Source of the DNA: Sorex araneus
Taxonomy: Eukaryota; Chordata; Mammalia; Eulipotyphla; Soricidae
Assembly: GCF_027595985.1 (NCBI RefSeq)
Contig: NC_073306.1
Span: forward strand, 78,201,977-78,265,976
Length of the DNA: 64,000 nucleotides
Direction of reading: 5' to 3'
Shown: positions 122-63,531 of the stretch, piece by piece
Numbering within the stretch: position 1 is the first letter of the stretch
Layout of the letters: the number at the start of each line of letters is the position of its first letter
Made by a program: the position numbers and the translations under genes
The notes under the pieces: generated by a model
Database searches by the model: none
What the model was told of the DNA's origin: nothing
The model's input: the letters and a program-made list of their open reading frames with translations, nothing else

Positions 122-324
122 TAGGAGAGCCTGGCAAGCTCCCCGTGGTGTATTCATATGCCAAAACCTGTAACAATGATGGGTCTTTGACCCTAACCCT
201 GACCCTGAAAGAGCATTCAATGTGGCACTGTTGGGAAGGACAAGTAAAGAGAGGTTTCTAAAATCTTAGGGCTAGGACAAATGGAGACATTACTGAGACC
301 GCTTGAGAAAATCGACTATCAACG

Positions 325-325
<1 letters not shown>
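122..325 (+). mobile_element. RTE-tailed composite retroposon, 5'-truncated
   Basis: This stretch matches the 3' half of the elements at 19,431-20,050 and 41,467-42,072. Shared parts include gtgtattcatatgccaaaac, a ccctgaccctgaaagag block and the terminal gagacattactgagaccgct part. The last 50 bases resemble the RTE 3' end seen at 62,354-62,407. The GC-rich 5' half is missing. The tail runs directly into the GAT microsatellite. Confidence 0.7.
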
Positions 326-391
<66 letters not shown>

Positions 392-2852: not shown

Positions 2853-3614
2853 AGAAATCCATGAAGAAGAAGGTAACCGGTGAAAAATCTGCCATGGAGG
2901 GGATGCTCCCTTGAAAATCTTTAGGGGGGATGAGGAAGGAATGGGATAACTTCTGTGTGAATGTGTGTGTATGAGCACCCCAAAAGGTCCTCCTATTTAG
3001 GCGTGATTTTGTGGCTCCACGACCTGGCATTCTTAAAATCCCACTAAGTCACGGAGCTCAAGTGGGCTGCCTGCCATTCCACGGAAGATGCACAGTCAAG
3101 GGTGGCGCTGGCATAAATGTCGGTCACAAGTCACAATGCTGAACTAGTACAGCTAACTCCTCCACTGGCCAGAGAAGAACCTGAGTGGTCTCTGCAAAGA
3201 GGCACCCCTCTTTTGTCTGTCTCGATTCAGCACCATTTATTATGGGAAGGACTGGAGGAAAACCCATTAGTAGGAAGATTCGGGGAAACTAAGGCAGATC
3301 CGGCTCTCAGGCAGAAATCCTTTCCCCACCCAGTCTAGATCAGTTAGGGGTCAATTGAAATTCAAATGAAAGTAGCCTGCAGGTTCAGCTCTGGGCAAAG
3401 TAAGGAAAAAGAAAAAAAGAAAGAGTAAAAGGCTGGGAAGATGTAGCAATCTAAGAAAGGCAAAGTTTTGCCAAGGGACCATCCTTTTTCATAAGGCATT
3501 GCCGGCACTCAGGAAATACGGGAAATTCTACATCAATACCCAAAGATTCTCCTGTGGGTTGCTTATTAAAATATCAGAGGAGCTTCCAACTAGGTAGTTT
3601 AAATGAGGAGCATT
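2853..3614 (+). other. Unassigned ERV internal sequence
   Basis: This lies between the gag start and the first SINE. It contains a Lys/Glu-coding purine stretch near 3,405-3,430 that could be a Gag spacer remnant. A 73-codon open frame at 3,117-3,338 has no motif I recognise. No protease motif was found. Confidence 0.35.
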
Positions 3615-3627
3615 TTGTTGACCTCTG

Positions 3628-3866
3628 GAGCAATAGCACAGCGGGTAGGGCGTTTGCCTTGCACGCAACCAAGCCCGGTTCGATTCCTCTGTCCCTGTCG
3701 GAGAGCCCAACAAGCTACAGAGAGTATCCCGCCTGCACAGCAGAGCCTGGCAAGCTCTCAGTGTGTATTTGATCTGCCAAAAACAGTAACAAGTCTCACA
3801 ATGGAGACGTTACTGGTGCCTGCTCCAGCAAATTGATGAACAATGGGAGGACAGAGGCTACAGTGC
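3628..3866 (+). mobile_element. SOR-type SINE, RTE-tailed class
   Basis: The tRNA-like head (agcacagcgggtagggcgtt, box B-like cggttcgattcc) is followed by the long second module and the tail gagacgttactggtgcctgc. It is flanked by the perfect 13-bp duplication ttgttgacctctg (3,615-3,627 and 3,867-3,879). Confidence 0.93.
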
Positions 3867-5640: not shown

Positions 5641-6281
5641 TTATTTTTTTTTTGCGATTCTTATATCTTTAATTTTCTTAAAGTAGTTCACAATAGTTCA
5701 TTACAGATAATGTTCAAATACCCACCCAACCAGTGAACACCTTCCCACCACAATAAGAGGGAAATGTGTGAAGGTTGTTGTATTTCATTCTGGGGTCATT
5801 TATGCCCATATGTAAGAGAATAAAAGCAAGTATGTTAAAACCAAACACATGTGTGCTATTTTAGGTACATCAGTGAGCTAGAGTATAAGAGGTCGAGCTC
5901 CAGGAAATACTGCATGCTTTCTTCTGGGGGCTTTGTTTTATAGTCTCTGGATCTTGGCTGTTGATGAGATTACATGGCACTGGGGGCAGTTTGTGGGTGT
6001 GACTGCCTAGCTACTGGAAAACTGGGGATCTGGGTAGAGGAGACCAAGTCCTGATCTAAGCAGGCTTAGAGATCTCAGCCATGGGTCCCACACACTTGGG
6101 CTCCTCTGCCGGTTCCTTCATGGGTCAGGCTCATCCGAGAGTGCAGAGAGTGGTCTTGAGCATGGCTGTGGTTGGGTTCTGGAGTTTTTAGGCTGCTTGG
6201 GTTCTTCTTGGGGCAGGGAGGGAGACTCAACCTGCCCCCCTCCAAGGGGTCCCTGGTAAAGATAAACAGGCTCTGGGGCAG
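5641..6281 (-). mobile_element. GC-headed retroposon with L1-like tail
   Basis: On the minus strand a GC-rich 5' half (about 6,281-6,100) resembles the 5' half of the element at 22,922-23,599. It is followed by an AT-rich 3' part ending at the T-run (5,642-5,653). It is bounded by the duplicated segments 5,523-5,640 and 6,282-6,385. No coding capacity is seen. Confidence 0.7.
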
Positions 6282-8081: not shown

Positions 8082-8158
8082 AAAAAAGTTGCAGGAAGTC
8101 AAGGGTTTTTCAACACGAGTTAGATGAATTAGACATTTAAATGAGTTAACATATTAAA

Positions 8159-8400
8159 CTGAGCCATAGCACAACGGTAGGGCATTTGCCTTGCACATGG
8201 CCGACCCGGGTTCAAGTCCTCCATCCCTCTTGGAGAGCTCGGCAAGCTACTGAGAGTATCACACCTGCACGGCAGAGCCTGGCAAGCTACCCGTGGCATA
8301 TTCACTATGCCAAAAACAGTAGCAACAAGTCTCACAATGGAGACATTACTGGTGCCCGCTCTAGTAAATCCATGAACATCGGGACGACAGTGAGACAGAA
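8159..8400 (+). mobile_element. SOR-type SINE, RTE-tailed class
   Basis: Head, second module (gagagctcggcaagctactg) and tail (gagacattactggtgcccgc) are all present. The word ggaagtcaaggtt occurs at about 8,439 and, in near-identical form, at about 8,094, so an uncertain duplication may enclose this copy and some flank. Confidence 0.88.
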
Positions 8401-18107: not shown

Positions 18108-18342
18108 TGCACTGTTGGTCTGTCCTCCCATTGTTCATCGACTTGCTCAAGTGGACACCAGTAACGTCTCCATTGTGAGACTTGTTGTTACTGTTTTTGG
18201 CATATCGAATATGCCTCGGGTCGCTTGCCGTGAGGGCGGGATACTCTCCGTAGCTTGCCGGGCTCTCCAAGAGGGACAGAGGAATCGAACCCAGGTCAGC
18301 CTCGTGCAAGGAAAACGCCCTACCTGCTGTGCTATGGAAAAA
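18108..18342 (-). mobile_element. SOR-type SINE, RTE-tailed class
   Basis: Inverted copy: the tail starts as tcctcccattgttcatcgac, followed by caccagtaacgtctccattg. The head ends near the A-run at 18,341. The 157-codon minus frame across it is chance. Confidence 0.9.
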
Positions 18343-18459
18343 AAAAATGTTTCTGGGCATATTTACACAGATTTGCTCTACAAGATTATCACCAGCTCCA
18401 CTAAGAAAAACACGTGGATATGGCACAAGGCCGCACTGAAAACATAAAGGCATGTAGGT

Positions 18460-19430: not shown

Positions 19431-20050
19431 TCATGCATGAGGCCTGTCCAAACGTGTAGAGAGGAGCCTCCAGCATGGCTGCAGCTAGGTTCTGGTGGTC
19501 TTCGGCCACTGGGAGCTCTGCTTGGGGTGGGGAGGGAAGCTGGAGCCCATCCCCTCCGAGGGGCCCCCGGGGAAGACAGCCAGGCATGAGGGCAAGAGAC
19601 TCTCTGCATCACTCTCTTCTGAGAGCTTGCTTTTAAGTCTCTGGATGTTGACCGTTGATGGGACAACCGGCAGAGGAACCCAGGTGTGTGTAATCCCATC
19701 AACAGTCAACATCCAGAGACTTAAAAGCAAGCTCTCAGAAGCGCAGGGCTGCAAGTGGCCGCGAAAAAGCGCAATATCTTTGACCTACTTCTCCCTCTAG
19801 GAGAAACTGGCAATCTTCTGAGAGTTTCCTGCCCCCATGGGACAGCCTTGCAAGCTCCCCATGGTGTATTCATATGCAAAATCCAGTAACAAGCTGGATC
19901 TCATTCCCCTGACCCTGAAGAGCCTCCAGTGCAACATCCTTAGGAGGGCCAAGTCGAGATAGACTTCTAAGATCTCAGGGAAAGTACGAAATGAGATGTT
20001 ACTGAGCCCGCCCGAGAAATCGGTGATTAATGGGATATTGTGTGTGTGTG
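19431..20050 (+). mobile_element. RTE-tailed composite retroposon with 5' inversion
   Basis: It is flanked by the perfect 12-bp duplication ataagagaatct (19,419-19,430 and 20,051-20,062). The 3' part (19,661-20,050) runs in plus sense, ending in a cgagaaatcggtgattaatg block and a short (GT)n. The 5' GC-rich part (19,431-19,660) is inverted. At the junction, arms of about 42 bp (19,620-19,661 and 19,697-19,738) form an inverted repeat around agagacttaaaagcaagctc. This resembles twin-primed reverse transcription. Confidence 0.85.
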
Positions 20051-21945: not shown

Positions 21946-22189
21946 GTTTAACTGGAGCGATAGCATAGCTAGGCATTTGCCTTGCACGCGGCCAATCTGG
22001 GTTTGATTCCTTTGTCCCTCTCGGAGAGCTTGGCAGGCTACCGAAAGTATCCCGCTCACATGGCAGAACCTGGCAAGCTACCTGTGGCATATTTGATATG
22101 CCAAAAACAGTAACAAGTCTCACAATGGAGACGTTACTGGTGCCCGCTCGAGCAAATCAATAAACAAGGAGATGAGAGTGCTACAGTGC
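21946..22189 (+). mobile_element. SOR-type SINE, RTE-tailed class
   Basis: Full-length copy with tail gagacgttactggtgcccgc. It is flanked by the perfect 10-bp duplication tacttgtgat (21,936-21,945 and 22,190-22,199). Confidence 0.93.
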
Positions 22190-22199
22190 TACTTGTGAT

Positions 22200-22921: not shown

Positions 22922-23599
22922 ATAGAAAATTCTGACCTTGCACCAGGCTGTCTTTACCAGGGCAACTCCGAGGGGGATGGGTTGTGTTTCTCTCCCTGCT
23001 CCAGCAGAATTCCTCAGCCAAAAACCTCCAGAACTCAACCAAAGCCTTGCTCAAGGCTGCTCTCCGCAAACTTGGACGAGCCTCACCCACAAGGGAACCT
23101 GCAGAAGAACCCAGGTATGCAGGCCCCATGACTGAAATCTCCAAACTTACTCGGAGTGGAACTGGGCCTCATCCCCCCAGCTCCAAAGCTTTCCAGGAGC
23201 TTGGCAGTCACATCCACAAACTAGCCCTGTTGCCCTATAATCTCATCAACGGCCAAGAGCCAGAGACTGAAACAAAGCTCCCAGAAGAAAACAACATATG
23301 CCTTATCCATGAGTGAATCTGCTCTATAATCATATCCTTAATTTTAGAATTCCTGGACCTCTCATACTCATAACCACTGATGTACCAAGAGTAGCACACA
23401 TTTGTTTGAGTAACAACATGTCTGTAATCTCATACAGGGACTTAATGGCACCAGGATAAAATACAACAATCTTCATGCACTTTCCTATAATGGTGATGGG
23501 AAGGTGCATGGTGGTGGGTTTGGTGTTTGAATACTAAATGTAATGAATTATTGTCAACAACTTTATATAAATTAAATAACTAAATAACATAAAATTTAA
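22922..23599 (+). mobile_element. GC-headed retroposon with L1-like tail, complete
   Basis: A 678-bp unit is flanked by the perfect 11-bp duplication aagtaccaagg (22,911-22,921 and 23,600-23,610). The 5' half is GC-rich (cagccaaaaacctccagaac, tggacgagcctcacccacaa). The 3' half is AT-rich and ends in a ggtgatgggaaggtgcatgg tract, tgtttgaatactaaatgtaa and an A-rich terminus, a layout like the local L1 3' UTR. Its 65-110 codon frames have no homology I know. Mobilisation by L1 in trans is inferred. Confidence 0.85.
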
Positions 23600-23984: not shown

Positions 23985-24640
23985 CATAATGACAATGAAG
24001 TGGCAGTCAGGCTACAAAATTGCATACTTGCATTTCTATATACAAATAATATGCCAGCAGTAAAAGAAATAAGGAGAATAATACCACTGAAAATTGCAAT
24101 AAAATATTACATGGCTTTGAATAAAGTTAACAAAAAAGTACACAGAGAATTATACATTGTTGAAAAATAAAGGCATAAAATATGGACTGACATTCTTTCT
24201 GTGCTTGAAATTAGAAAAATTGTTAATACAGCACTTATTAAAACAGTATACAGATTTATTATAATTTCTATCAAAATTTAAATGGAATTTTATGCAAATA
24301 TTTTTAAGTCAAAAAGTTTATTTGAGTGTTACAGCTCTTTTAGAATTTGTCTAGCAGGCTTTCTGGTCTCCACCGGAAAGCCCCCACCTACAAAAAAAAA
24401 AAAAAGTTTATTTGAAATTCCAAAGGATCCCAAATAGAAAAAACATTTCTGAGACAAAAAGAATAAAAGTACTAATCTAAAAGGTAGACACACATATATT
24501 CATTGCAGTATTTTTTATAGTAAACTCAGAACTGGAAACAGCCCATGTCCTCATCAACAGATTAAGGATTATAGAGGCTATGACACAACATCAGTACACA
24601 CCGAAATACTCAGCTATAAAAAGAATAAAACTCTGCCATT
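23985..24640 (+). mobile_element. Ancient L1 ORF2 fragment (left part)
   Basis: Degraded ORF2 sequence runs from the C-terminal RT region (tggcagtcaggctacaaaat) to the end region (attcattgcagtattttt). It is interrupted by a small retrocopy (24,326-24,400) and then by the full-length L1 at 24,657. Its continuation is at 31,377-31,640. Confidence 0.75.
24326..24400 (+). mobile_element. 75-bp poly(A) retrocopy of unknown small transcript
   Basis: About 66 bp plus a poly(A) run are flanked by the perfect 15-bp duplication aaaaagtttatttga (24,311-24,325 and 24,401-24,415). It contains a strong hairpin: the stem ggctttc pairs with ggaaagcc across a short loop. ACA follows shortly before the As. 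The layout recalls the 3' hairpin of an H/ACA snoRNA, but I cannot name the parent, and an mRNA 3' end is also possible. Confidence 0.6.
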
Positions 24641-27196: not shown

Positions 27197-28563
27197 TCAA
27201 AAGTCTTCCCAAAAACAAAAGCCCAGGCCCAGACAGATTCACTAGCGAATTCTTCCAAACATTTAAAGAGGACCTATTGCCAGTTCTACTCAAGCTTTTC
27301 CAGGAAATTGAAGAAACAGAAACCCTCCCAAACAGTTTCTATGAGGTTCACATCTCCCTAATACCAAAAGTAAACAAAGACACCACAAAAAAAGAAAACT
27401 ACAGGCCAATATCCCTGATGAACACAGATGCGAAGATTCTCAACAAAATATTAGCAAACAGAATTCAACAACTCATCAAAAAGATCATACACCACGACCA
27501 AGTGGGATTCATCCCAGGGATGCAAGGATGGTTTACCATTTGGAAATCAATCAACATAATCCATCATATCAACAAAAGAAAAGATAAAAATCATATAATC
27601 ATATCAATAGATGCAGAGAAAGCATTTGACAAGATCCAGCACGCGTTTATGATGAAAACTCTCACCAAAATGGGTATAGAAGGGACCTTCCTCAATATAG
27701 TCAAAGCCATCTACCACAAGCCTATGGCAAGCATCATCCTCAATGGGGAAAAACTAAGACCCTTCCCTCTGAGAACAGGGACAAGACAAGGATGCCCACT
27801 CTCTCCTCTTCTGTTCAATATAGTACTGGAAGTACTTGCAACAGCGATTAGGCAAGAAAAAGATATTAAGGGCATTCAGGTAGGAAAGGAAGAAATCAAG
27901 CTCTCACTATTCGCTGATGATATGATATTATACTTAGAAAACCCTAAAACCTCTACCAAGAAACTCCTAGAAACAATAGACTCATATAGTAAAGTTGCAG
28001 GCTATAAAATCAACACCCAAAAGTCCATGGCTTTCTTATATGCAAATAGTGAGAGAGAACAAAGCGACATGATAAAAGCTATCCCATTCACAATTGTGCA
28101 TCAAAAAATAAAATACCTCAGAATCAGCTTAACTAAGGAGGTAAAGGACTTGTATAATGAAAACTACAAAATGCTACTTCAGGAAATAAAAGAAGACACG
28201 AGGAAATGGAAAAATATCCCCTGCTCATAGATTGGAAGAATTAATATTGTCAAAATGGCAATTCTCCCCAAAGCATTGTACAAATTCATTGCAATCCCTA
28301 TAGGAATACCCTTGTCATTCTTCAAAGAAATGGAGCAAGCGGTCCTGAAATTCATATGGAACAATAAACCCACACGAATAGCTAAAGCAATTCTTGGGAA
28401 AAAGAAAATGGGAGGAATCAACCTCCCCAACTTCCAACTCTACTACAAAGCGGTAGTCATTAAAACAGCTTGGTACTGGAACAAAGGCAGAGCGGCAGAC
28501 CAATGGAACAGGGTTGAATACTCTGACACATCCCCCCCAAATATATTACCATCTACTCTTTGA
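27181..28563 (+). pseudogene. L1 ORF2 part 2: reverse transcriptase and thumb
   Basis: Reading continues one frame over. RT motifs include [38 protein letters not shown] and the catalytic FADD (27,910-27,921). A Trp codon in the conserved NIPCSW motif has become TAG (28,228-28,230). The frame then stays open to 28,563, where a run of Cs near 28,531-28,538 marks another frameshift. The catalytic Asp pair is preserved, but the protein is cut in pieces. Confidence 0.93.
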
Positions 28564-30858: not shown

Positions 30859-31360
30859 TGTAACTAAGAAGTACAAGTTGGCAACGATGCAACTTCTGGC
30901 AGATATCTCTCTGGACTTAGTTACTAAAATACTAAAATACAGAAACCCAAAACCGAGAGGCCGCTACGTGTGGTCACTCGACCTCATACCTGTTCATCCT
31001 CAGCAATGGAAAATAAATTATCTAATGCTTCCTTTTCAGCAGGTCTAACTTTAGGGGAGAGAGTCTCTAAACAATAATAGTGAGTTTTGTTGAAATATTG
31101 AATGCAATCAAAGTGAAAGTAAATTGAAATTTATTAGTTACACAGGCGGGGGGGGGGCTTAGTGTGGGGGGGCTAGGGACGTGGGGGGGTTAGGGGTGTG
31201 GGGGTGCGGGGTGGAGCTATAATGGGATTCTTGGTGGTGGATTATGTGCACTGGTGAAGGGATGGGTATTCGAGCATTGTATAACTGAGACTTAAACCTG
31301 AAAACTTTGTAACTTTCCACATGGTGACTCAATAAAAATTTTAAAAAAAATAAAAATAAA
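30859..31360 (+). other. L1 3' UTR with G-rich tract
   Basis: It holds a G-rich tract (31,146-31,215), the ggtgaagggatgggtattcg and gtaactttccacatggtgac blocks common to L1 tails here, and an AATAAA-containing A-rich end. Confidence 0.85.
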
Positions 31361-36486: not shown

Positions 36487-36694
36487 AGCCTTGCTCGCTT
36501 CAGCAGCACATATACTAAAATTGGAATGATACAGAGGAGATTTGCATGGCCCCTGCACAAGGATGACATGCAAATTCGTGAAGCATTCCATATTTTTGGT
36601 ATGACTGTAACACATGCACAAAACTCTGTAACTGTACCCTCCCAGTGACTCATTAGTAAAAAAAAAATTTTTTTAAGAAAATTTGGAGAGATGA
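36487..36694 (+). mobile_element. U6 snRNA / L1 chimeric retrocopy
   Basis: A U6-like sequence (36,491-36,597) is joined directly to the last bases of an L1 3' UTR (about 36,603-36,660) and an A-rich tail. The whole is flanked by the 12-bp duplication aaaaaagactca (36,475-36,486 and 36,695-36,706). The single duplication pair shows one insertion event, as expected when L1 reverse transcriptase switches template from L1 RNA to U6. Confidence 0.9.
36491..36597 (+). pseudogene. RNU6 pseudogene: U6 snRNA pseudogene
   Basis: Nearly full-length U6: tgctcgcttcagcagcacat at the 5' end, the ACAGAG box retained (36,531-36,536), and a terminal tattttt. Substitutions versus vertebrate U6 as I know it include tcagcagc for tcggcagc and gaatgat for gaacgat. 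A further change is gacatgc for gacacgc. Upstream sequence belongs to a retroposon, not to a U6 promoter (no PSE/TATA seen), so it is a retropseudogene. Confidence 0.93.
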
Positions 36695-38320: not shown

Positions 38321-38374
38321 CTATAGGGAGAAATGTTAAATGGGTATTACTTATTTGGCATTAAAAATCAAGTA

Positions 38375-38634
38375 TCACTGTATCACTGTCATCCCATTGT
38401 TCATCGAATTGCTCGAGCGGGCACCAGTAACGTCTCCATTGTGAGACTTGTTGTTACTGTTTTTGGCATGTCAAATATGCCACTGGTAGCTTGCCAAGCT
38501 CTGCCTTGCGGGTGAGATACTCTCAGTAGCTTACCAGACTCTCCAAGAGGGGCAGAGGAATCGCACCCAGGTCGGCCGCATGCAAGGCAAACTCCCTACC
38601 CACTGTGCTATCGCTCCAGCCCCCCTCGCCCCAA
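38375..38634 (-). mobile_element. SOR-type SINE, RTE-tailed class
   Basis: Inverted complete copy with tail tatcactgtcatcccattgt and head at the right. It is flanked by aaaaatcaagta (38,363-38,374 and 38,635-38,646). Confidence 0.93.
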
Positions 38635-39244: not shown

Positions 39245-40333
39245 TCTCTCCGATAAAGAATTCAGAGACGAAACGTGAGTTCAATGCGTTCAAAGAAAAA
39301 GGGGAACGGACATCCAGTAAATTTAAGGAGGATATGAAAGAAACAGTAGAACAGACAGTAAAATACAGGAAGAAATGAGAGCAGAAATAAGAAAGCTACA
39401 AACAGAACTATCACTAATAAAGAATTCAGTAGATGAAATTAAAAACTCAGGGGGTGCCCTCAACAGTAGAATGACAACAGCCGAAGACAGAATCAGTGAG
39501 CTTGAAGATGAGCTGCAGAAAGCATACAGGCAAAAACAGACAATGGAAAAATACCTCAAAATAGCTCAAGGGTGAATAAGAGAGACCGAGGGGATGAATT
39601 CAAAAGGAATAGCATAAGGATCATCAGAGTATGACAGGGAGGCAACCCCAATGAAGTAGTAACAGTTAAATTAATATCATTGCTGAGAAGTTCCCAAAGC
39701 TGGAGAATGCAGGCATCCAGATCCAAGAAGGCCAAAGGGTACCAGCTAAAACAGATCCTAATAAAAAGACTCCAAGACATATCTTAATCAGAATGACAAA
39801 TGTCACAGATAGAGACATAATACTCCAACCAGCAAGGTCAAGGAAATCACATACAAAGGAGCAGTCCTTAGATTTACAGCAGGCTTACAGAGGAAACCGT
39901 CCAAGTCCGAAGACAGAGGTGGGATATAGTGGAAAAACTCAGTGAAATTAATGCCTTACTGTCACTGTCATCCCGTTGCTCATCGATTTGTTCGAGCAGG
40001 CACCAGTAATGTCTCCAAAGAGATTTGTTTGTTACTCTTTTTGGCATGTTGAATATGCCATGGGTAGCTTGCCAGGCTCTGCTGTGCGGGTGAGATACTG
40101 TTGGTAGCTTGCTGGGTTCTCCGAGAGGGGTGAAGGGATCGAACCTGGGTCGGTCACGTGCAAGGCAAATGCCTTACCACTATGCTATCGCTCCAGCCCT
40201 AAGAGTACTTTATCCAGCTAGACTCTCACTCAGCCTTGAAGGAACAATATACTATTTTGTGGATAAACCACAGCTCAGGAACTTCATATACTCAAAACCA
40301 ACCTTAAAAGAAGGGCTGAAGAGGCTTCTGTAA
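39245..40333 (+). pseudogene. L1 ORF1 remnant, split by a SINE
   Basis: The block order of ORF1 is kept: LSDKEF-like start (39,250), coiled coil ([20 protein letters not shown] in the frame 39,375-39,575), broken RRM, then the C-terminal domain (frame to 40,333). Multiple stops and frameshifts are present. A minus-strand SINE interrupts the C-terminal domain at 39,958-40,200. Confidence 0.88.
39958..40200 (-). mobile_element. SOR-type SINE, RTE-tailed class, within L1
   Basis: Inverted complete copy from ctgtcactgtcatcccgttg to tatgctatcgctccagccct. L1 ORF1 homology resumes at once on the right. Confidence 0.9.
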
Positions 40334-41466: not shown

Positions 41467-42072
41467 AAAGGGGGTGGCTCTAGCTTCCCTCCCCAACCCG
41501 AGCAGAGCTCCCTTGGCCAAAGACCACCGGAGCCTAGCCACAGCCGTGCTCAAGGCCCCTCTCCAGATGTTCGAACAAGCCTCACGCATGAAGGTACCTG
41601 CAGAGGAACCAGGTGTGTGGGACCTGGGGTTGAGACCTCCAAGCCTGCTCCGATCAAGATTGGGCCTCTTCCGCCCAGATTTCCCATTTTCCAGTAGCTA
41701 GGCATTCACACCCAGGGACTGCCCCCGATGCCGTGTAATCCCACCAATGGCCAACACCCAGAGACTATAAAACCAAGCTCCCGGAAACAACATTTTATAG
41801 CCTACTTCTCCCTCTGGGAGAACCTGGCAAGCTATCAAGAGTTTCCTGCCCAAATGGGAGAGCCTCGAAAACTCCCCATGGTGTATTCATATGCCAAAAC
41901 CAGTAACAATGCTGGGTCTCATTCCCCTGACCCTGAAAGAGCCTCCAATTTGGCATCATTGGGAAGGACAAGTAAAGAGAGGCTTCTAAACTCTCAGGGC
42001 TAGGACAAATGGAGATGTTACTGAGACCGCTCAAGAAATTTGACCGTCAACGGGATGATGATGATGATGATG
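41467..42072 (+). mobile_element. RTE-tailed composite retroposon, full structure
   Basis: The GC-rich 5' half (agcttccctccccaacccga, gttcgaacaagcctcacgca) is followed by the second module (gtgtattcatatgccaaaac) and an RTE-like tail ending in a short GAT run. A probable duplication aagata(a/c)tatc lies at 41,456-41,466 and 42,073-42,083 with one mismatch. Confidence 0.8.
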
Positions 42073-42199
42073 AAGATACTATCTGAACAAAGACAGACAA
42101 ACAGAATAATGGGTGAAAGCAGGTCCACATTGACATAGATCATTGTCCTTCAGTTTAAGAGGAAAAGATAGCACTGCAAAGCAACTGAGAAAGGCTGGT

Positions 42200-42473: not shown

Positions 42474-42718
42474 GGGGCTGGAGCGATAGTACAGCGGGTA
42501 GGGGGTTTGCTTTGCATGCGGCTGACCCAGATTCGATTCCTCAGCCCCTCTTGGAGATCCCGGCAAGCTATCGAGAGTATCTCCCCACATGGCAGAGCCT
42601 GGCAAGCTACCCATGGCGTATTCAATATGCCAAAACCAGTAACAAGTCTCACAATGGACACATTACTGGTGCCCACTCGATCAAATCAATAAGCAACGGG
42701 ATGACAGTGATACAGTGA
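42474..42718 (+). mobile_element. SOR-type SINE, RTE-tailed class
   Basis: Head ggggctggagcgatagtaca, second module and tail with gatgacagtgatacagtgat. Confidence 0.92.
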
Positions 42719-42774
42719 TATTGAAATAATACATTTATATTCACACAAAACGTCCACTATGTTCATAAAGAGTG

Positions 42775-43890: not shown

Positions 43891-44072
43891 TTTTTTTTTT
43901 TTTTTTTTGCTTTTTGGGTCACACCTGGCGATGCTCAGGGGCTACTCCTGGCTCTGCACTCAGGAATCACTCCTGGCGGTGCTCAGGGGACCATATGGGA
44001 TGCTGGGAATCGAACCCGGGTCGGCCGCGTGCAAGGCAAATGCCCTACCCGCTGTGCTATCACTCCAGCCCC
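43891..44072 (-). mobile_element. SOR-type SINE, poly(A) class, complete
   Basis: Inverted, well conserved. It is flanked by tgtcctgtcctttttt (43,875-43,890 and 44,073-44,088). Low divergence suggests a recent insertion. The 79 and 105-codon frames over it are not genes. Confidence 0.95.
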
Positions 44073-44880: not shown

Positions 44881-45000
44881 AAAATTAATAAAACATGGTT
44901 TTAAGAGTTTTCCAAAATAAGTAATATTGTATGATTCTTCTATTTAAGTTTCAGAGCAACCAAATTAATGCTAAAATTTGGGATAGTGTGTACTTCCTGA

Positions 45001-45241
45001 GGGCTGGAGCACAGCGGTTGGGCTTTCTCCTTTCATGCGGCTGACCCGTGTTCGGTTCCTCTGCCCCTCTCGGAGAGACCGGCAAGCTACTGAGAGTATG
45101 GAGCCCACACGGCAGAGCCTGGCAAGCTACCCATGCGTATTGGATATGCCAAAAACAGTAACAATAAGTCTCTCAATGAGAGACGTTACTGGTGCCCGCT
45201 CGAGCAAATCGATGAGCAATGGGATGACAGTGACAGTGACA
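45001..45241 (+). mobile_element. SOR-type SINE, RTE-tailed class
   Basis: Flanked by the perfect 13-bp duplication gtgtacttcctga (44,988-45,000 and 45,242-45,254). The tail shows a cagtgacagtgacagt repeat. The head has lost the ATAG word. Confidence 0.95.
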
Positions 45242-45374
45242 GTGTACTTCCTGAAAAAGAAGGAAAAAAACATATTGATAAGAGAGTAACAAAGATATTT
45301 TGTAAAAAAAAGTTGATGTAAGTGAAGCCATTAGCTGTCACTATCAGAAATGTATTTTTTCCCCAGTGACTTGC

Positions 45375-45530
45375 AAGCTACCGAGAGTATCTCGCCCCCA
45401 AGGCAGAGCCTGGCAAGTTACCCGTGGCGTATTGGATATGCCAAAAAAGAGTAACAAGTCTCACAATGGAGACGTTACTGGTGCCTGCTCGAGCAAATCG
45501 ATGAACAACAGGATGACAGTGACAGTGACA
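45375..45530 (+). mobile_element. SOR-type SINE, RTE-tailed class, 5'-truncated
   Basis: Begins inside the second module (gcaagctaccgagagtatct). Its 3' end at 45,465-45,518 matches the RTE 3' end at 62,354-62,407 (minus strand) at 47 of 54 positions. The AGTGAC-type tail is repeated. Confidence 0.93.
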
Positions 45531-46616: not shown

Positions 46617-46748
46617 TCTGTCACTGTCACTGTCATCCCGTTGCTCGTCCATTTGCTCGAGCGGGCACCAGTAACGTCTCCATGTGAGACATGTTGTTAC
46701 CGTTTGGGGCATATCGAATATGCCATGGGTAGCTTGCCAGGCTCTGCC
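46617..46748 (-). mobile_element. SOR-type SINE, RTE-tailed class, truncated
   Basis: Inverted tail and second module only (ctgtcactgtcatcccgttg to tagcttgccaggctctgcca). Confidence 0.88.
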
Positions 46749-46855
46749 ACTCCAACAGTGTGGTCACGTCATATCTGTAAGTGTGTAGTTTTTATAACTA
46801 GCATTTTTGTAGTTAGCATTTTTTTAAATTTTTTCTATTTAAAAGATTTATTTAG

Positions 46856-61551: not shown

Positions 61552-62338
61552 GAAAATAGTATCTACACAATGGAAAACTAAAGCAGTTGTTAGGAAAAAT
61601 GAAGTCATGAAATTTGCTTATAAATGGATGGACATGGAAAGTATCATGCTAAATGAAATGAGTCTGAAGAAGAGAGACAGACAGAATAATTACATTCATT
61701 TGTACAATATTTTAAAAAAGCATAGTGTGATATTATTACCAAAGTATAGCAGAAATGAAGGCCAGGAGGACTAGCCTATGGCTGGAAGCCTGCCACAAGT
61801 ATGAAGTTGGGAAGGGGAGAGGATAGTTAGTATAGAAAAGGGACCACTATGACAATGATTTTTGGGAATAATCACTCTGCACAAGACTGAGTGTTGAAAG
61901 TAGGGAAAGGATTATATATGATAACCTTTCAGTACCTATATTGTAAGCCACAATGCTCAAAAGGAAATAGATACAGAGATCTAAGGAAGAGAAAGAAGGA
62001 GAAGGAGAAGGGGAAGGGAAAGGGGAAAAGGAAGAAGAAGGAAGAAGGAGGAGGGGGAGGTGAGGAGAGAGGAGGAGGAGGACAAGGAAGAGGACGAGGA
62101 GGATGATGAAGATGAGGAGAAGAAGGAGAAGGAGGAGGAGAAGGAGGAGGAGGAGGAGGAGGAGGAGGAGGAGTCGGCCTAGTGCCTGTCATGGAGGCTG
62201 ACTGGGTGGTGGAAGGTGAAAGGAGGGAAACTGAGGACCCCAGTAGTAAGAAATGTACACTGCTGAAGGGACATGTGTTGGAATATTGTATGACTGAAAC
62301 CCAATCACGAACAACTTTATAACTGTGTATCTCACAGT
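61552..62338 (+). mobile_element. L1 ORF2 end and 3' UTR (left part)
   Basis: The frame 61,550-61,774 carries an MKFAYKWMDMESIMLNEMS ending, followed by a 3' UTR and the terminal gtgtatctcacagt. The A-rich end is at 63,077-63,100, beyond the RTE insertion. A purine microsatellite has expanded inside. Confidence 0.85.
61978..62174 (+). repeat. (GGA)n / (GAA)n purine repeat
   Basis: An imperfect purine tract within the L1 3' UTR. The poly-Pro minus frame and Lys/Gly plus frame are artefacts. Confidence 0.95.
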
Positions 62339-63066
62339 ATCACTTGTATCACTTGTCATCCTGTTGCTTATCTAGTTGCTCGAGCAGGTGCCAGTAACAT
62401 CTCCATTCGTCTCTGTCGCGTCCTGGTGTAGCTCAATGGCATCTGCTTGCTCCAGGAACATGAAGAGGCTCAAACCATTAATTCAGGGTCTTGATGAAGA
62501 AGTCTGACCATCTCGTAAGTGGGTGTCCAGGTGTTCTTTTGACATCCCGTGGAATCCAGTCAAGCATGACCATTCTATTATAAGAGAAAGGAGACACCCA
62601 CAACATTGGCAACTATTGCCAGATCTGCCTGTTGTCCGTCATACAAGTTGTTCACTCGAGTCATCCTGAATAGAACAGTCATACTGAATAGAACACTAGA
62701 TGAAGGACAACCATGCAAGCAAGCTGGGTTCCATAAAGGATTCAACATGATCAACTATATCCACACAGTGACCAAGCTCACTGAGGTTTCACGGGAGTTC
62801 AAGATGCCGCTCTGTCTAACATTCATAGATTTAAAGAAGGCCTTTGACTCTTTTGAGACTGAAGTGGTCATCGAAGCTCTAGCCAAACAGGGCATTCAAA
62901 CTCAGTATGTCAGGATCCTCCGTGAGCTGTATTATGGATTCACCACCGGGATCTCACCATTCTACAAGGAAGCAATCATCAACATAAAGAGAGGTGTTTG
63001 GCAGGGCAACACCATTTCACTGAAACTCTTCAGTGCCACCCCTGAGAATATCATGTGATGACTGAA
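62339..63066 (-). mobile_element. RTE-clade LINE fragment with 5' inversion
   Basis: 728 bp flanked by the 10-bp duplication atctcacagt (62,329-62,338 and 63,067-63,076) inside an L1 tail. The left part (62,339-62,575) is the element's 3' end in minus sense. It encodes the ORF C-terminus (WIPRDVKRTPGHP, then GRDRDEW) and a repeated-word tail. The right part (62,583-63,055) is RT sequence in plus sense. Opposite senses within one duplication pair mean a twin-primed 5' inversion. Confidence 0.88.
62586..63058 (+). pseudogene. RTE-clade reverse transcriptase fragment
   Basis: An open stretch (62,606-63,058) carries RT motifs: YKLFTRVILNR, then LDEGQPCKQAGFHKGFNMI (equivalent of the QxGF block). 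Next comes LCLTFIDLKKAFDSFETE with the first catalytic Asp, then GVWQGNTISLKLFSAT, equivalent to RQGD(T/P)xSPxLF. Gly-Asp reads Gly-Asn here. The wording fits the RTE clade, not L1 (compare [13 protein letters not shown]). The YADD region and endonuclease are absent. An early frameshift lies near 62,625-62,640. Confidence 0.9.
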
Positions 63067-63100
63067 ATCTCACAGTTTCATAAATTTCATAAAAAATAAT

Positions 63101-63353
63101 GCACTGCCACTGTAGCACTGTTGTCCTATTGTTCATCGATTTGCCGAGCTGGCACCAGTAACGTCTCCATTGTGAGACTTGTTGTTACTGTTTTTGGCAT
63201 ATCGAATATGCCACGGGTAGCTTGCCAGGCTCTGCTGTGCGGGCAGGAAATTTTTAGTAGCTTGCTGGGCTCTCTGAGAGGGACGAAGGAATCGAACCTG
63301 GGTCGGCCTCATGCAAGACAAATGTCTTACCCACTGTGCTATCACTCCAGTCC
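63101..63353 (-). mobile_element. SOR-type SINE, RTE-tailed class, inverted
   Basis: Tail (tgttgtcctattgttcatcg) on the left, head (ctatcactccagtcc) at the right, abutting the next SINE head to head. It shares the outer duplication cataaaaaataat (63,088-63,100 and 63,519-63,531) with it. Confidence 0.92.
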
Positions 63354-63518
63354 TAGCACAGCAGGTAGGGTGTTTTCCCTGCATGTGGCCAACCCGGGTT
63401 TGATTCCCCCGTTCCTGTCAGAGAACCCAGCAAACTACTGAGAGTATCCTGCCTGCACGGCAGAGCCTGGCAAGCTACCCATGAAGTATCGATATGCCAA
63501 AAACAGTAACAAGTCTCA
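63354..63518 (+). mobile_element. SOR-type SINE, RTE-tailed class, 3'-truncated
   Basis: Begins near the head (tagcacagcaggtagggtgt) and stops within the second module (aacagtaacaagtctca), just before the right-hand duplication. No tail. Confidence 0.9.
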
Positions 63519-63531
63519 CATAAAAAATAAT

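What the first reader, a model, noticed from the sequence alone, without database searches (positions are those of the whole stretch)
62339..63066. RTE-clade LINE in a shrew-like genome, with a twin-primed inversion
The RT fragment has RTE wording (LCLTFIDLKKAFDS, QAGFHKGF) and the 3' end encodes an RTE-type C-terminus on the other strand. Both lie inside one 10-bp duplication pair. From memory, this wording is closest to RTE elements of nematodes and arthropods rather than to L1 or typical BovB. That would raise horizontal transfer, as known for BovB and AviRTE.
Basis: partly seen in the sequence, partly recalled or inferred. Interest (0 to 1): 0.82.

Follow-up and report, generated by a model that had tools for sequence, protein, structure and literature searches.

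The report
Nematode-type retrotransposon and its SINE riders
This stretch of a shrew-like mammalian genome holds a broken, inverted copy of a jumping gene of a kind otherwise found in parasitic worms (its transfer to shrews is already published), and the same jumping gene has supplied both ends of an abundant family of short repeats, which I did not find described.

Summary
Window 62336-63066 is one copy of an RTE-clade LINE, with its 3' end and C-terminus on the minus strand and part of its RT on the plus strand, inside a 10-nt target duplication: a 5'-truncated, twin-primed inversion. The RT fragment is 59-74% identical to strongylid-nematode RTEs and 28-32% to Bov-B, and groups with the nematodes (100/100). 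The 2.4-Gb genome gave 39 more scored copies, so it is not contamination. The family and its transfer are published (RTE1_Sar of Sorex araneus; Dunemann & Wasmuth 2019). What I did not find described: an abundant shrew SINE rides on this LINE. It has a tRNA-Ala head, ~105 nt of the LINE's 5' end and the last ~60 nt of its 3' end, which still read as the nematode-type C-terminus (WRRYWCPLEQIDEQRDD). All 17 head-bearing copies tested match both LINE ends. A second rider with a GC-rich head has the same two ends. Each is of order 10^5 copies by extrapolation from 110 kb. Bipartite RTE-driven SINEs are known for AviRTE and Bov-B, so this is a new member of a known kind.

The parts
62336..62562 (-). 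RTE 3' segment, sense on minus: C-terminal codons, stop and tail (element ~2869-3100)
   Evidence: 82% to a genomic copy; nematode C-termini, E 3.6e-27
62563..63066 (+). RTE reverse-transcriptase segment, inverted relative to the 3' segment (element ~1716-2214)
   Evidence: 85% to a genomic copy; RVT_1
62329..62338 (.). target-site duplication ATCTCACAGT next to the element's 3' end (its GT may also be tail)
63067..63076 (.). target-site duplication ATCTCACAGT next to the inverted RT segment
62337..62356 (-). 3' tail repeat of the RTE, period 9, 2.2 copies
62352..62561 (-). C-terminal ORF remnant in one frame with two stops
3621..3866 (+). SINE form A (tRNA-Ala head, RTE 5' piece, RTE 3' piece); 12-nt duplication
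8155..8399 (+). SINE form A
18110..18347 (-). SINE form A
21948..22192 (+). SINE form A; 10-nt duplication
38372..38623 (-). SINE form A; 12-nt duplication
39959..40200 (-). SINE form A
42474..42722 (+). SINE form A
45000..45240 (+). SINE form A; 13-nt duplication
45361..45528 (+). SINE form A, head missing
46620..46765 (-). SINE form A, head missing
63106..63354 (-). SINE form A, about 40 nt from the RTE copy
122..349 (+). form B rider (RTE 5' and 3' pieces, GAT tail), 5'-truncated
19780..20041 (+). form B rider with a GC-rich head upstream
41791..42085 (+). form B rider with a GC-rich head upstream and GAT tail
43912..44072 (-). form C: same tRNA-Ala head, different body, poly-A tail, no RTE parts (contrast)

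Best explanation
62336-63066 is a dead, 5'-truncated, twin-primed copy of the RTE-clade LINE known from Sorex as RTE1_Sar. Its enzyme nicked the target and copied about 230 nt of its RNA's 3' end. The second target end then primed inside the same RNA near element position 2214 and was copied back to about 1716, which left an inverted RT piece, a 654-nt gap in the element and a 10-nt duplication (inferred from anatomy; the pattern recurs in the genome). The same LINE drives at least two non-autonomous families. Form A, the SINE, is a tRNA-Ala head (same as the head of the A-tailed shrew SINE, form C) joined after the B box to ~105 nt of the LINE's 5' end and then to its last ~60 nt plus a tail repeat. 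Pol III would make the RNA, and the LINE protein would recognise the 3' piece and copy it at a nick (inferred). Form B has a different, GC-rich head and the same two LINE ends. Since the LINE came from a strongylid nematode (published), these host SINEs run on a worm-derived engine.
For: RT: 59-74% to the strongylid-type rows used in the tree against 28-32% to Bov-B rows; tree 100/100. Element anatomy, duplication and empty site. 39 other copies of the RT stretch at 84-86%; 10,699 first-look candidates, only 40 scored. SINE 3' part: 11 other places in the window (10 form A, one form B) share 54-69 nt with the LINE's 3' end (E 3e-4 to 5e-14), and a Nippostrongylus RTE C-terminus finds 9 of these tails at E<=4e-5. 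SINE 5' part: expected from AviRTE/Bov-B SINEs, then found at the LINE's 5' end in copies at different genomic places (E to 2e-39); 17 of 17 head-bearing copies tested match both ends. Head shared with form C: 60 of 67 positions, then 6 of 23. Exact repeats of 10-13 nt around 4 of 9 head-bearing SINEs of the window. Form B.
Against: Mobilisation by the LINE is inferred from shared ends; no assay. The 29 LINE copies compared average 3.7% from consensus at non-CpG-type sites, the 11 SINE copies 8.9%, so the SINEs look older; the LINE copies were best matches to the window, which biases them young, but this is unresolved. Around 5 of 9 SINEs no repeat over 6 nt was found. The 5' piece was not shown in any nematode, so it could be host sequence taken up by the LINE. 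No endonuclease domain passed Pfam's cut-off. The Repbase consensus was not at hand.
Confidence: 0.9

Rival explanations
1. The fragment is mammalian Bov-B or L1, inherited vertically.
For: Bov-B proteins do match the RT stretch, weakly (28-32%); R2 and L1 chains match at E 2e-5 to 2e-3; an L1-like remnant lies elsewhere in the window (27214-28026).
Against: Strongylid RTEs match at E down to 1e-58 and 59-74%; the tree separates Bov-B at 100/100; the C-terminus matches strongylid RTEs at E 3.6e-27.
Confidence: 0.01
2. Nematode contamination of the assembly.
For: Dunemann & Wasmuth mention some contamination in an older shrew assembly (PMC6542046, section heading and discussion).
Against: 39 other copies on ten large contigs, 29 of them 7.4% from their consensus on average; this one sits in a repeat of the same window beside a shrew-type SINE; the same paper rejects contamination for RTE1_Sar.
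Confidence: 0.01
3. Two independent insertions, or a later rearrangement, rather than twin priming.
For: Opposite-strand segments can arise that way; the 654-nt gap is large; L014 shows an opposite-strand arrangement that does not fit twin priming.
Against: One duplication frames both segments, the outer end of the inverted piece is its 3'-proximal end as twin priming requires, and L023 repeats the pattern with a 12-nt duplication.
Confidence: 0.07
4. The SINE is moved by L1 and shares the LINE ends only by ancestry; or the LINE took its 5' end from the SINE.
Against: Form A ends in a tail repeat like the LINE's (ACAGTGAT against ACAAGTGAT), and none of its 9 head-bearing window copies has a run of 8 A in the 220 nt after the head; its 3' piece is LINE coding sequence, so that part came from the LINE; the LINE 5' end and form B continue ~80 nt that form A lacks.
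Confidence: 0.1

Closest known systems
RTE1_Sar (Sorex araneus; Dunemann & Wasmuth 2019, PMC6542046)
   Same: RTE LINE of high copy number in a shrew, nearest to strongylid nematode RTEs; transfer to the shrew lineage already argued
   Different: A term search of the paper's main text finds no SINE, inversion or twin priming.
AviRTE and its SINEs (Suh et al. 2016, PMC4844689, passages read)
   Same: Nematode-linked RTE whose host gained several SINEs with different heads and a bipartite tail from the LINE's 5' and 3' ends
   Different: Birds and filarial nematodes. The shared 3' piece there is described as 3' UTR; here it runs into the C-terminal codons, because the stop codon lies in the tail repeat
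Bov-B and Bov-B-mobilised SINEs (Gogolevsky et al. 2008, recalled; cited)
   Same: RTE clade, bipartite SINE tails
   Different: RT 28-32% identical, separate clade
Sor SINE of shrews (named in PMC11240701, passages read)
   Same: Shrew SINE; probably form C here (guess, not tested by sequence)
   Different: Form C is A-tailed and has no RTE parts; form A swaps the body after the B box

Membership tests
RTE-clade LINE | RT domain nested among RTE elements | tested here: met
   RVT_1 E 9.3e-8; 120 listed hits of 272, the named ones strongylid; tree. That those proteins are RTE-clade rests on the paper and on knowledge
RTE-clade LINE | AP-type endonuclease upstream of RT | tested here: inconclusive
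   Exo_endo_phos_2 E 0.0058 (L012) and 0.11 (L005), below cut-off
RTE-clade LINE | very short 3' end with simple-repeat tail, target duplications | tested here: met
   stop lies in the tail unit; duplications 10 nt (window) and 12 nt (L023); none found at L018
RTE1_Sar | similarity to the Repbase consensus | not testable with these tools
   consensus not held; assignment rests on host type, copy number and strongylid kinship
RTE1_Sar | high copy number in the shrew, nearest kin in strongylids | tested here: met
   the genome's species name was not shown to me
Bov-B | groups with ruminant Bov-B | tested here: not met
   28-32% identity, 100/100 split
L1 | closest to L1 ORF2 | tested here: not met
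   L1 chains only E 5.7e-4 or weaker against 1e-58 for strongylid RTEs
twin-primed insertion | 5' segment inverted, 3'-proximal end outermost, one duplication around both | tested here: met
bipartite RTE-mobilised SINE | pol III head | tested here: met
   tRNA-Ala called at 3625-3699 in one form A copy of 11 in the window, and in one form C copy; transcription not tested
bipartite RTE-mobilised SINE | piece of the LINE's 5' end | tested here: met
   17 of 17 copies tested; E to 2e-39
bipartite RTE-mobilised SINE | piece of the LINE's 3' end | tested here: met
   17 of 17 copies tested, 32-66 nt; nematode C-term tblastn
bipartite RTE-mobilised SINE | moved by the RTE enzyme | not testable with these tools
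   needs an assay; 10-13 nt repeats around 4 of 9 copies are consistent

The most novel reading that the evidence does not exclude
A retrotransposon that a mammal acquired from a parasitic nematode was captured at least twice by host sequences, once by the tRNA-Ala SINE already present and once by an unrelated GC-rich head. It has since produced of order 10^5 copies of each, so a few per cent of a shrew genome is traffic on a worm-derived engine, and this is undescribed.
Probability: 0.45. Interest if true: 0.55.

Novelty: new member of a known kind. Interest (0 to 1): 0.42.

Why it matters
The LINE and its transfer from nematodes are published, so the finding as given is a fossil copy of a known element. 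The SINE link adds that a parasite-derived LINE changed its host's genome beyond its own copies. It also gives a mammalian parallel to AviRTE in birds: a second case in which the recipient of a nematode-linked RTE grew bipartite SINEs with different heads. The shared tRNA head with two alternative bodies (A-tailed and RTE-type) gives a testable before-and-after series for how a SINE changes engine, datable by comparing shrews, moles and hedgehogs.

Tried and rejected
Bov-B and L1 as the source: rejected by tree and identities. Contamination: rejected. The second 10-nt repeat (ATGACTGAAA) as the duplication: it is not at the element's ends. A first impression that 13 of 29 RTE copies form a family with its own ends was an artefact: minus-strand loci are not flipped by the genome search. 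A first impression that form B has no head was wrong: 5 of 10 long copies share a GC-rich head. L014 was not counted as twin-primed, because neither segment holds the 3' end. No relatives of the RTE in viral contigs or genome contigs, and no SINE-tail match in viral contigs. Literature: a SINE tied to an RTE in shrews was sought (listings; passages of six papers, and sections of PMC6542046); I found none that ties a shrew SINE to RTE1_Sar. That library lacks most subscription journals, and Repbase and Dfam were not at hand.

Full report
What is there. The RT fragment is real (Pfam RVT_1, E 9.3e-8). The minus strand of 62561-62352 reads in one frame as an RTE C-terminus with two stops. Six nematode C-termini were used; the best, from Nippostrongylus (P0177), matches 63% over 70 columns at E 3.6e-27, and 10 single-base shuffles of the window gave no hit at E<=1e-3. 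Against one genomic copy of the same element as a coordinate frame, the minus segment 62336-62562 is element 3100-2869 and the plus segment 62563-63068 is element 1716-2214, so the junction is at ~62562/62563. The element is about 3.1 kb: the farthest shared 5' edge lies ~215 nt before locus L005.

Twin priming. ATCTCACAGT stands at both outer edges (62329-62338, 63067-63076). The left flank is the end of a host repeat with other copies in the window (48630-48474, 51666, 31244, 1190, 59811). With the insert and one duplication removed, the flanks continue much like those copies, by eye. The outermost end of the inverted piece is its 3'-proximal end, as twin priming requires. Of 29 other genomic copies fetched (L002-L030, of 39 scored), two show the same pattern: L023, with a 12-nt duplication but also an internal deletion and a 146-nt gap at the inner junction, and L018, with a clean junction but no duplication found. 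L009 and L026 are possible, with gaps of 258 and 225 nt, and L014 was not counted.

What it is. The first search listed the best 120 of 272 proteins. The named ones are Haemonchus, Ancylostoma, Necator, Angiostrongylus, Nippostrongylus, Heligmosomoides and Parelaphostrongylus, all strongylid nematodes (recalled taxonomy); a few unnamed ENA rows stand among them. In a 25-row tree the window falls with 19 such rows (three of them unnamed ENA) at 100/100, and five Bov-B rows (four named Bos or Capra, one unnamed) fall apart; a sixth Bov-B row (P0305) was dropped for short overlap. In a second tree of 22 rows, four unnamed ENA fragments group with the window (100/98); their source is unknown, possibly shrew. 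The genome (2,405,902,106 bases, 65 contigs) gave 41 matches: the window itself, 39 other copies of the RT stretch at 84-86%, and one short fragment; there were 10,699 first-look candidates, of which only 40 were scored. This excludes contamination and fits Sorex araneus, although the species name was not shown to me.

Already known. Dunemann & Wasmuth 2019 (PMC6542046; [quoted passage not shown] A term search of its main text finds no mention of SINEs, inversion or twin priming. I could not compare with the Repbase consensus itself.

The SINE. The last part of the element's 3' end occurs in 11 other places of the window by blastn (54-69 nt, 74-86% identity, E 3e-4 to 5e-14). Ten are form A copies and one (42004) is form B; nhmmer added one more form A copy (8155-8399), which makes 11 form A copies. 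Translated, these tails are the C-terminus of the LINE's ORF: the Nippostrongylus sequence ending EWRRYWRPLEQIDDQRDDR finds nine of them at E<=4e-5; two further copies reach only 0.002 and 0.46. Bipartite SINEs of AviRTE and Bov-B suggested that the SINE's middle should come from the LINE's 5' end (Suh et al. 2016, passages read). I fetched 5' regions of nine genomic copies; two (L032, L039) are 5'-truncated and seven were compared. SINE positions ~65-175 match the LINE's 5' end at 85-91% over 105-112 nt in four (E 8e-32 to 2e-39) and over 77-80 nt in two; the seventh starts inside this stretch and matches over 12 nt only. All 17 head-bearing form A copies that I tested, 9 from the window and 8 from random loci, match one of four LINE 5' pieces and one of four LINE 3' pieces (3' matches 32-66 nt). 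The head is the tRNA-Ala head of an A-tailed SINE, form C: 60 of 67 positions of the two consensuses are identical, then 6 of 23 after the B box.

A second rider. Form B carries ~190 nt of the LINE's 5' end and the 3' piece; 2 of 3 window copies have a (GAT)n tail. Upstream, 5 of 10 long copies share 75-400 nt of a GC-rich module containing TATAAAA or TTAAAAG; of the other five, three start inside the RTE piece and two have different upstream sequence. AviRTE in birds also has SINEs with GC-rich heads.

How many. In 11 random 10-kb loci (L040-L050, the first 11 of 51 positions drawn by script from ten contigs), I count 8 head-bearing form A, 2 headless A and one fragment, 7 form B, and 2 LINE 3' ends; L040 had none. 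Scaled to 2.4 Gb this is roughly 175,000 head-bearing A and 150,000 B, each uncertain by about twofold either way (Poisson, my estimate).

Age. Mean divergence from consensus outside CG, TG and CA: LINE RT piece 3.7% for 29 copies (window copy 4.7%), form A 8.9% for 11, form C 12.1% for 6 (range 3.1-25%), form B 7.9% for 3. The LINE copies were chosen as best matches to the window and so are biased young. Taken at face value, the SINEs look older, which I cannot resolve here.

Mechanism. Shown: shared ends, similar tail repeats, exact repeats of 10-13 nt around 4 of 9 head-bearing form A copies of the window (around the other 5 the longest shared word was 4-6 nt), and a shared head with an A-tailed SINE. 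Inferred: pol III transcription from the tRNA head, recognition of the 3' piece by the LINE protein, target-primed reverse transcription. Not shown: that the LINE moves the SINE, the direction of the 5' sharing, and the nematode origin of the 5' piece.

Verdict. The addition is that this nematode-derived LINE shares both ends with, and so most likely powers, an abundant bipartite SINE and a second rider in the shrew. That is a new member of a known kind, unless Repbase or Dfam already records the link.

Noticed in passing
41791-42085, 19780-20041, 122-349; L050:7616-7366, L048:9082-9333, L044:2652-2408: Form B: RTE 5' and 3' pieces, in 5 of 10 long copies behind a GC-rich head with a TATAAAA- or TTAAAAG-like motif. 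Head copies without a detected RTE body also occur (5922-6099, 23163-23297).
   Followed up: partly
63352-63521 (+): SINE A body (head plus RTE 5' piece) without the RTE 3' piece, ending A-rich, head to head with a full form A copy.
   Followed up: no
L002-L030 3' ends: By eye, LINE 3' ends come in two wordings: IEDQ (L005, L010) and IDEQ/IDKQ (L003, L011, L019; the window copy reads LDKQ). Form A carries IDEQ.
   Followed up: partly
P0003, P0013, P0053, P0099: Unnamed ENA protein fragments on contigs under 2 kb group with the window RT rather than with any named nematode (100/98); possibly shrew DNA in other data sets.
   Followed up: partly
48630-48474, 51666-51594, 31244-31314, 1190-1240, 59811-59736: A host interspersed repeat ending about ..TCTCACRGTGATTCA.., into one copy of which the RTE inserted.
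   Followed up: partly
36491-36597 and 24324-24385: Full-length U6 and U7 snRNA matches, gene or pseudogene.
   Followed up: no
27214-28026: L1-like RT remnant, matched by Bov-B query proteins at 29-31%; the L1 label is recalled, not tested.
   Followed up: no
one search hits P0242 and P0268: Bov-B proteins filed under bacterial names (Mycoplasmopsis, Mycolicibacterium), most likely ruminant DNA contamination.
   Followed up: no
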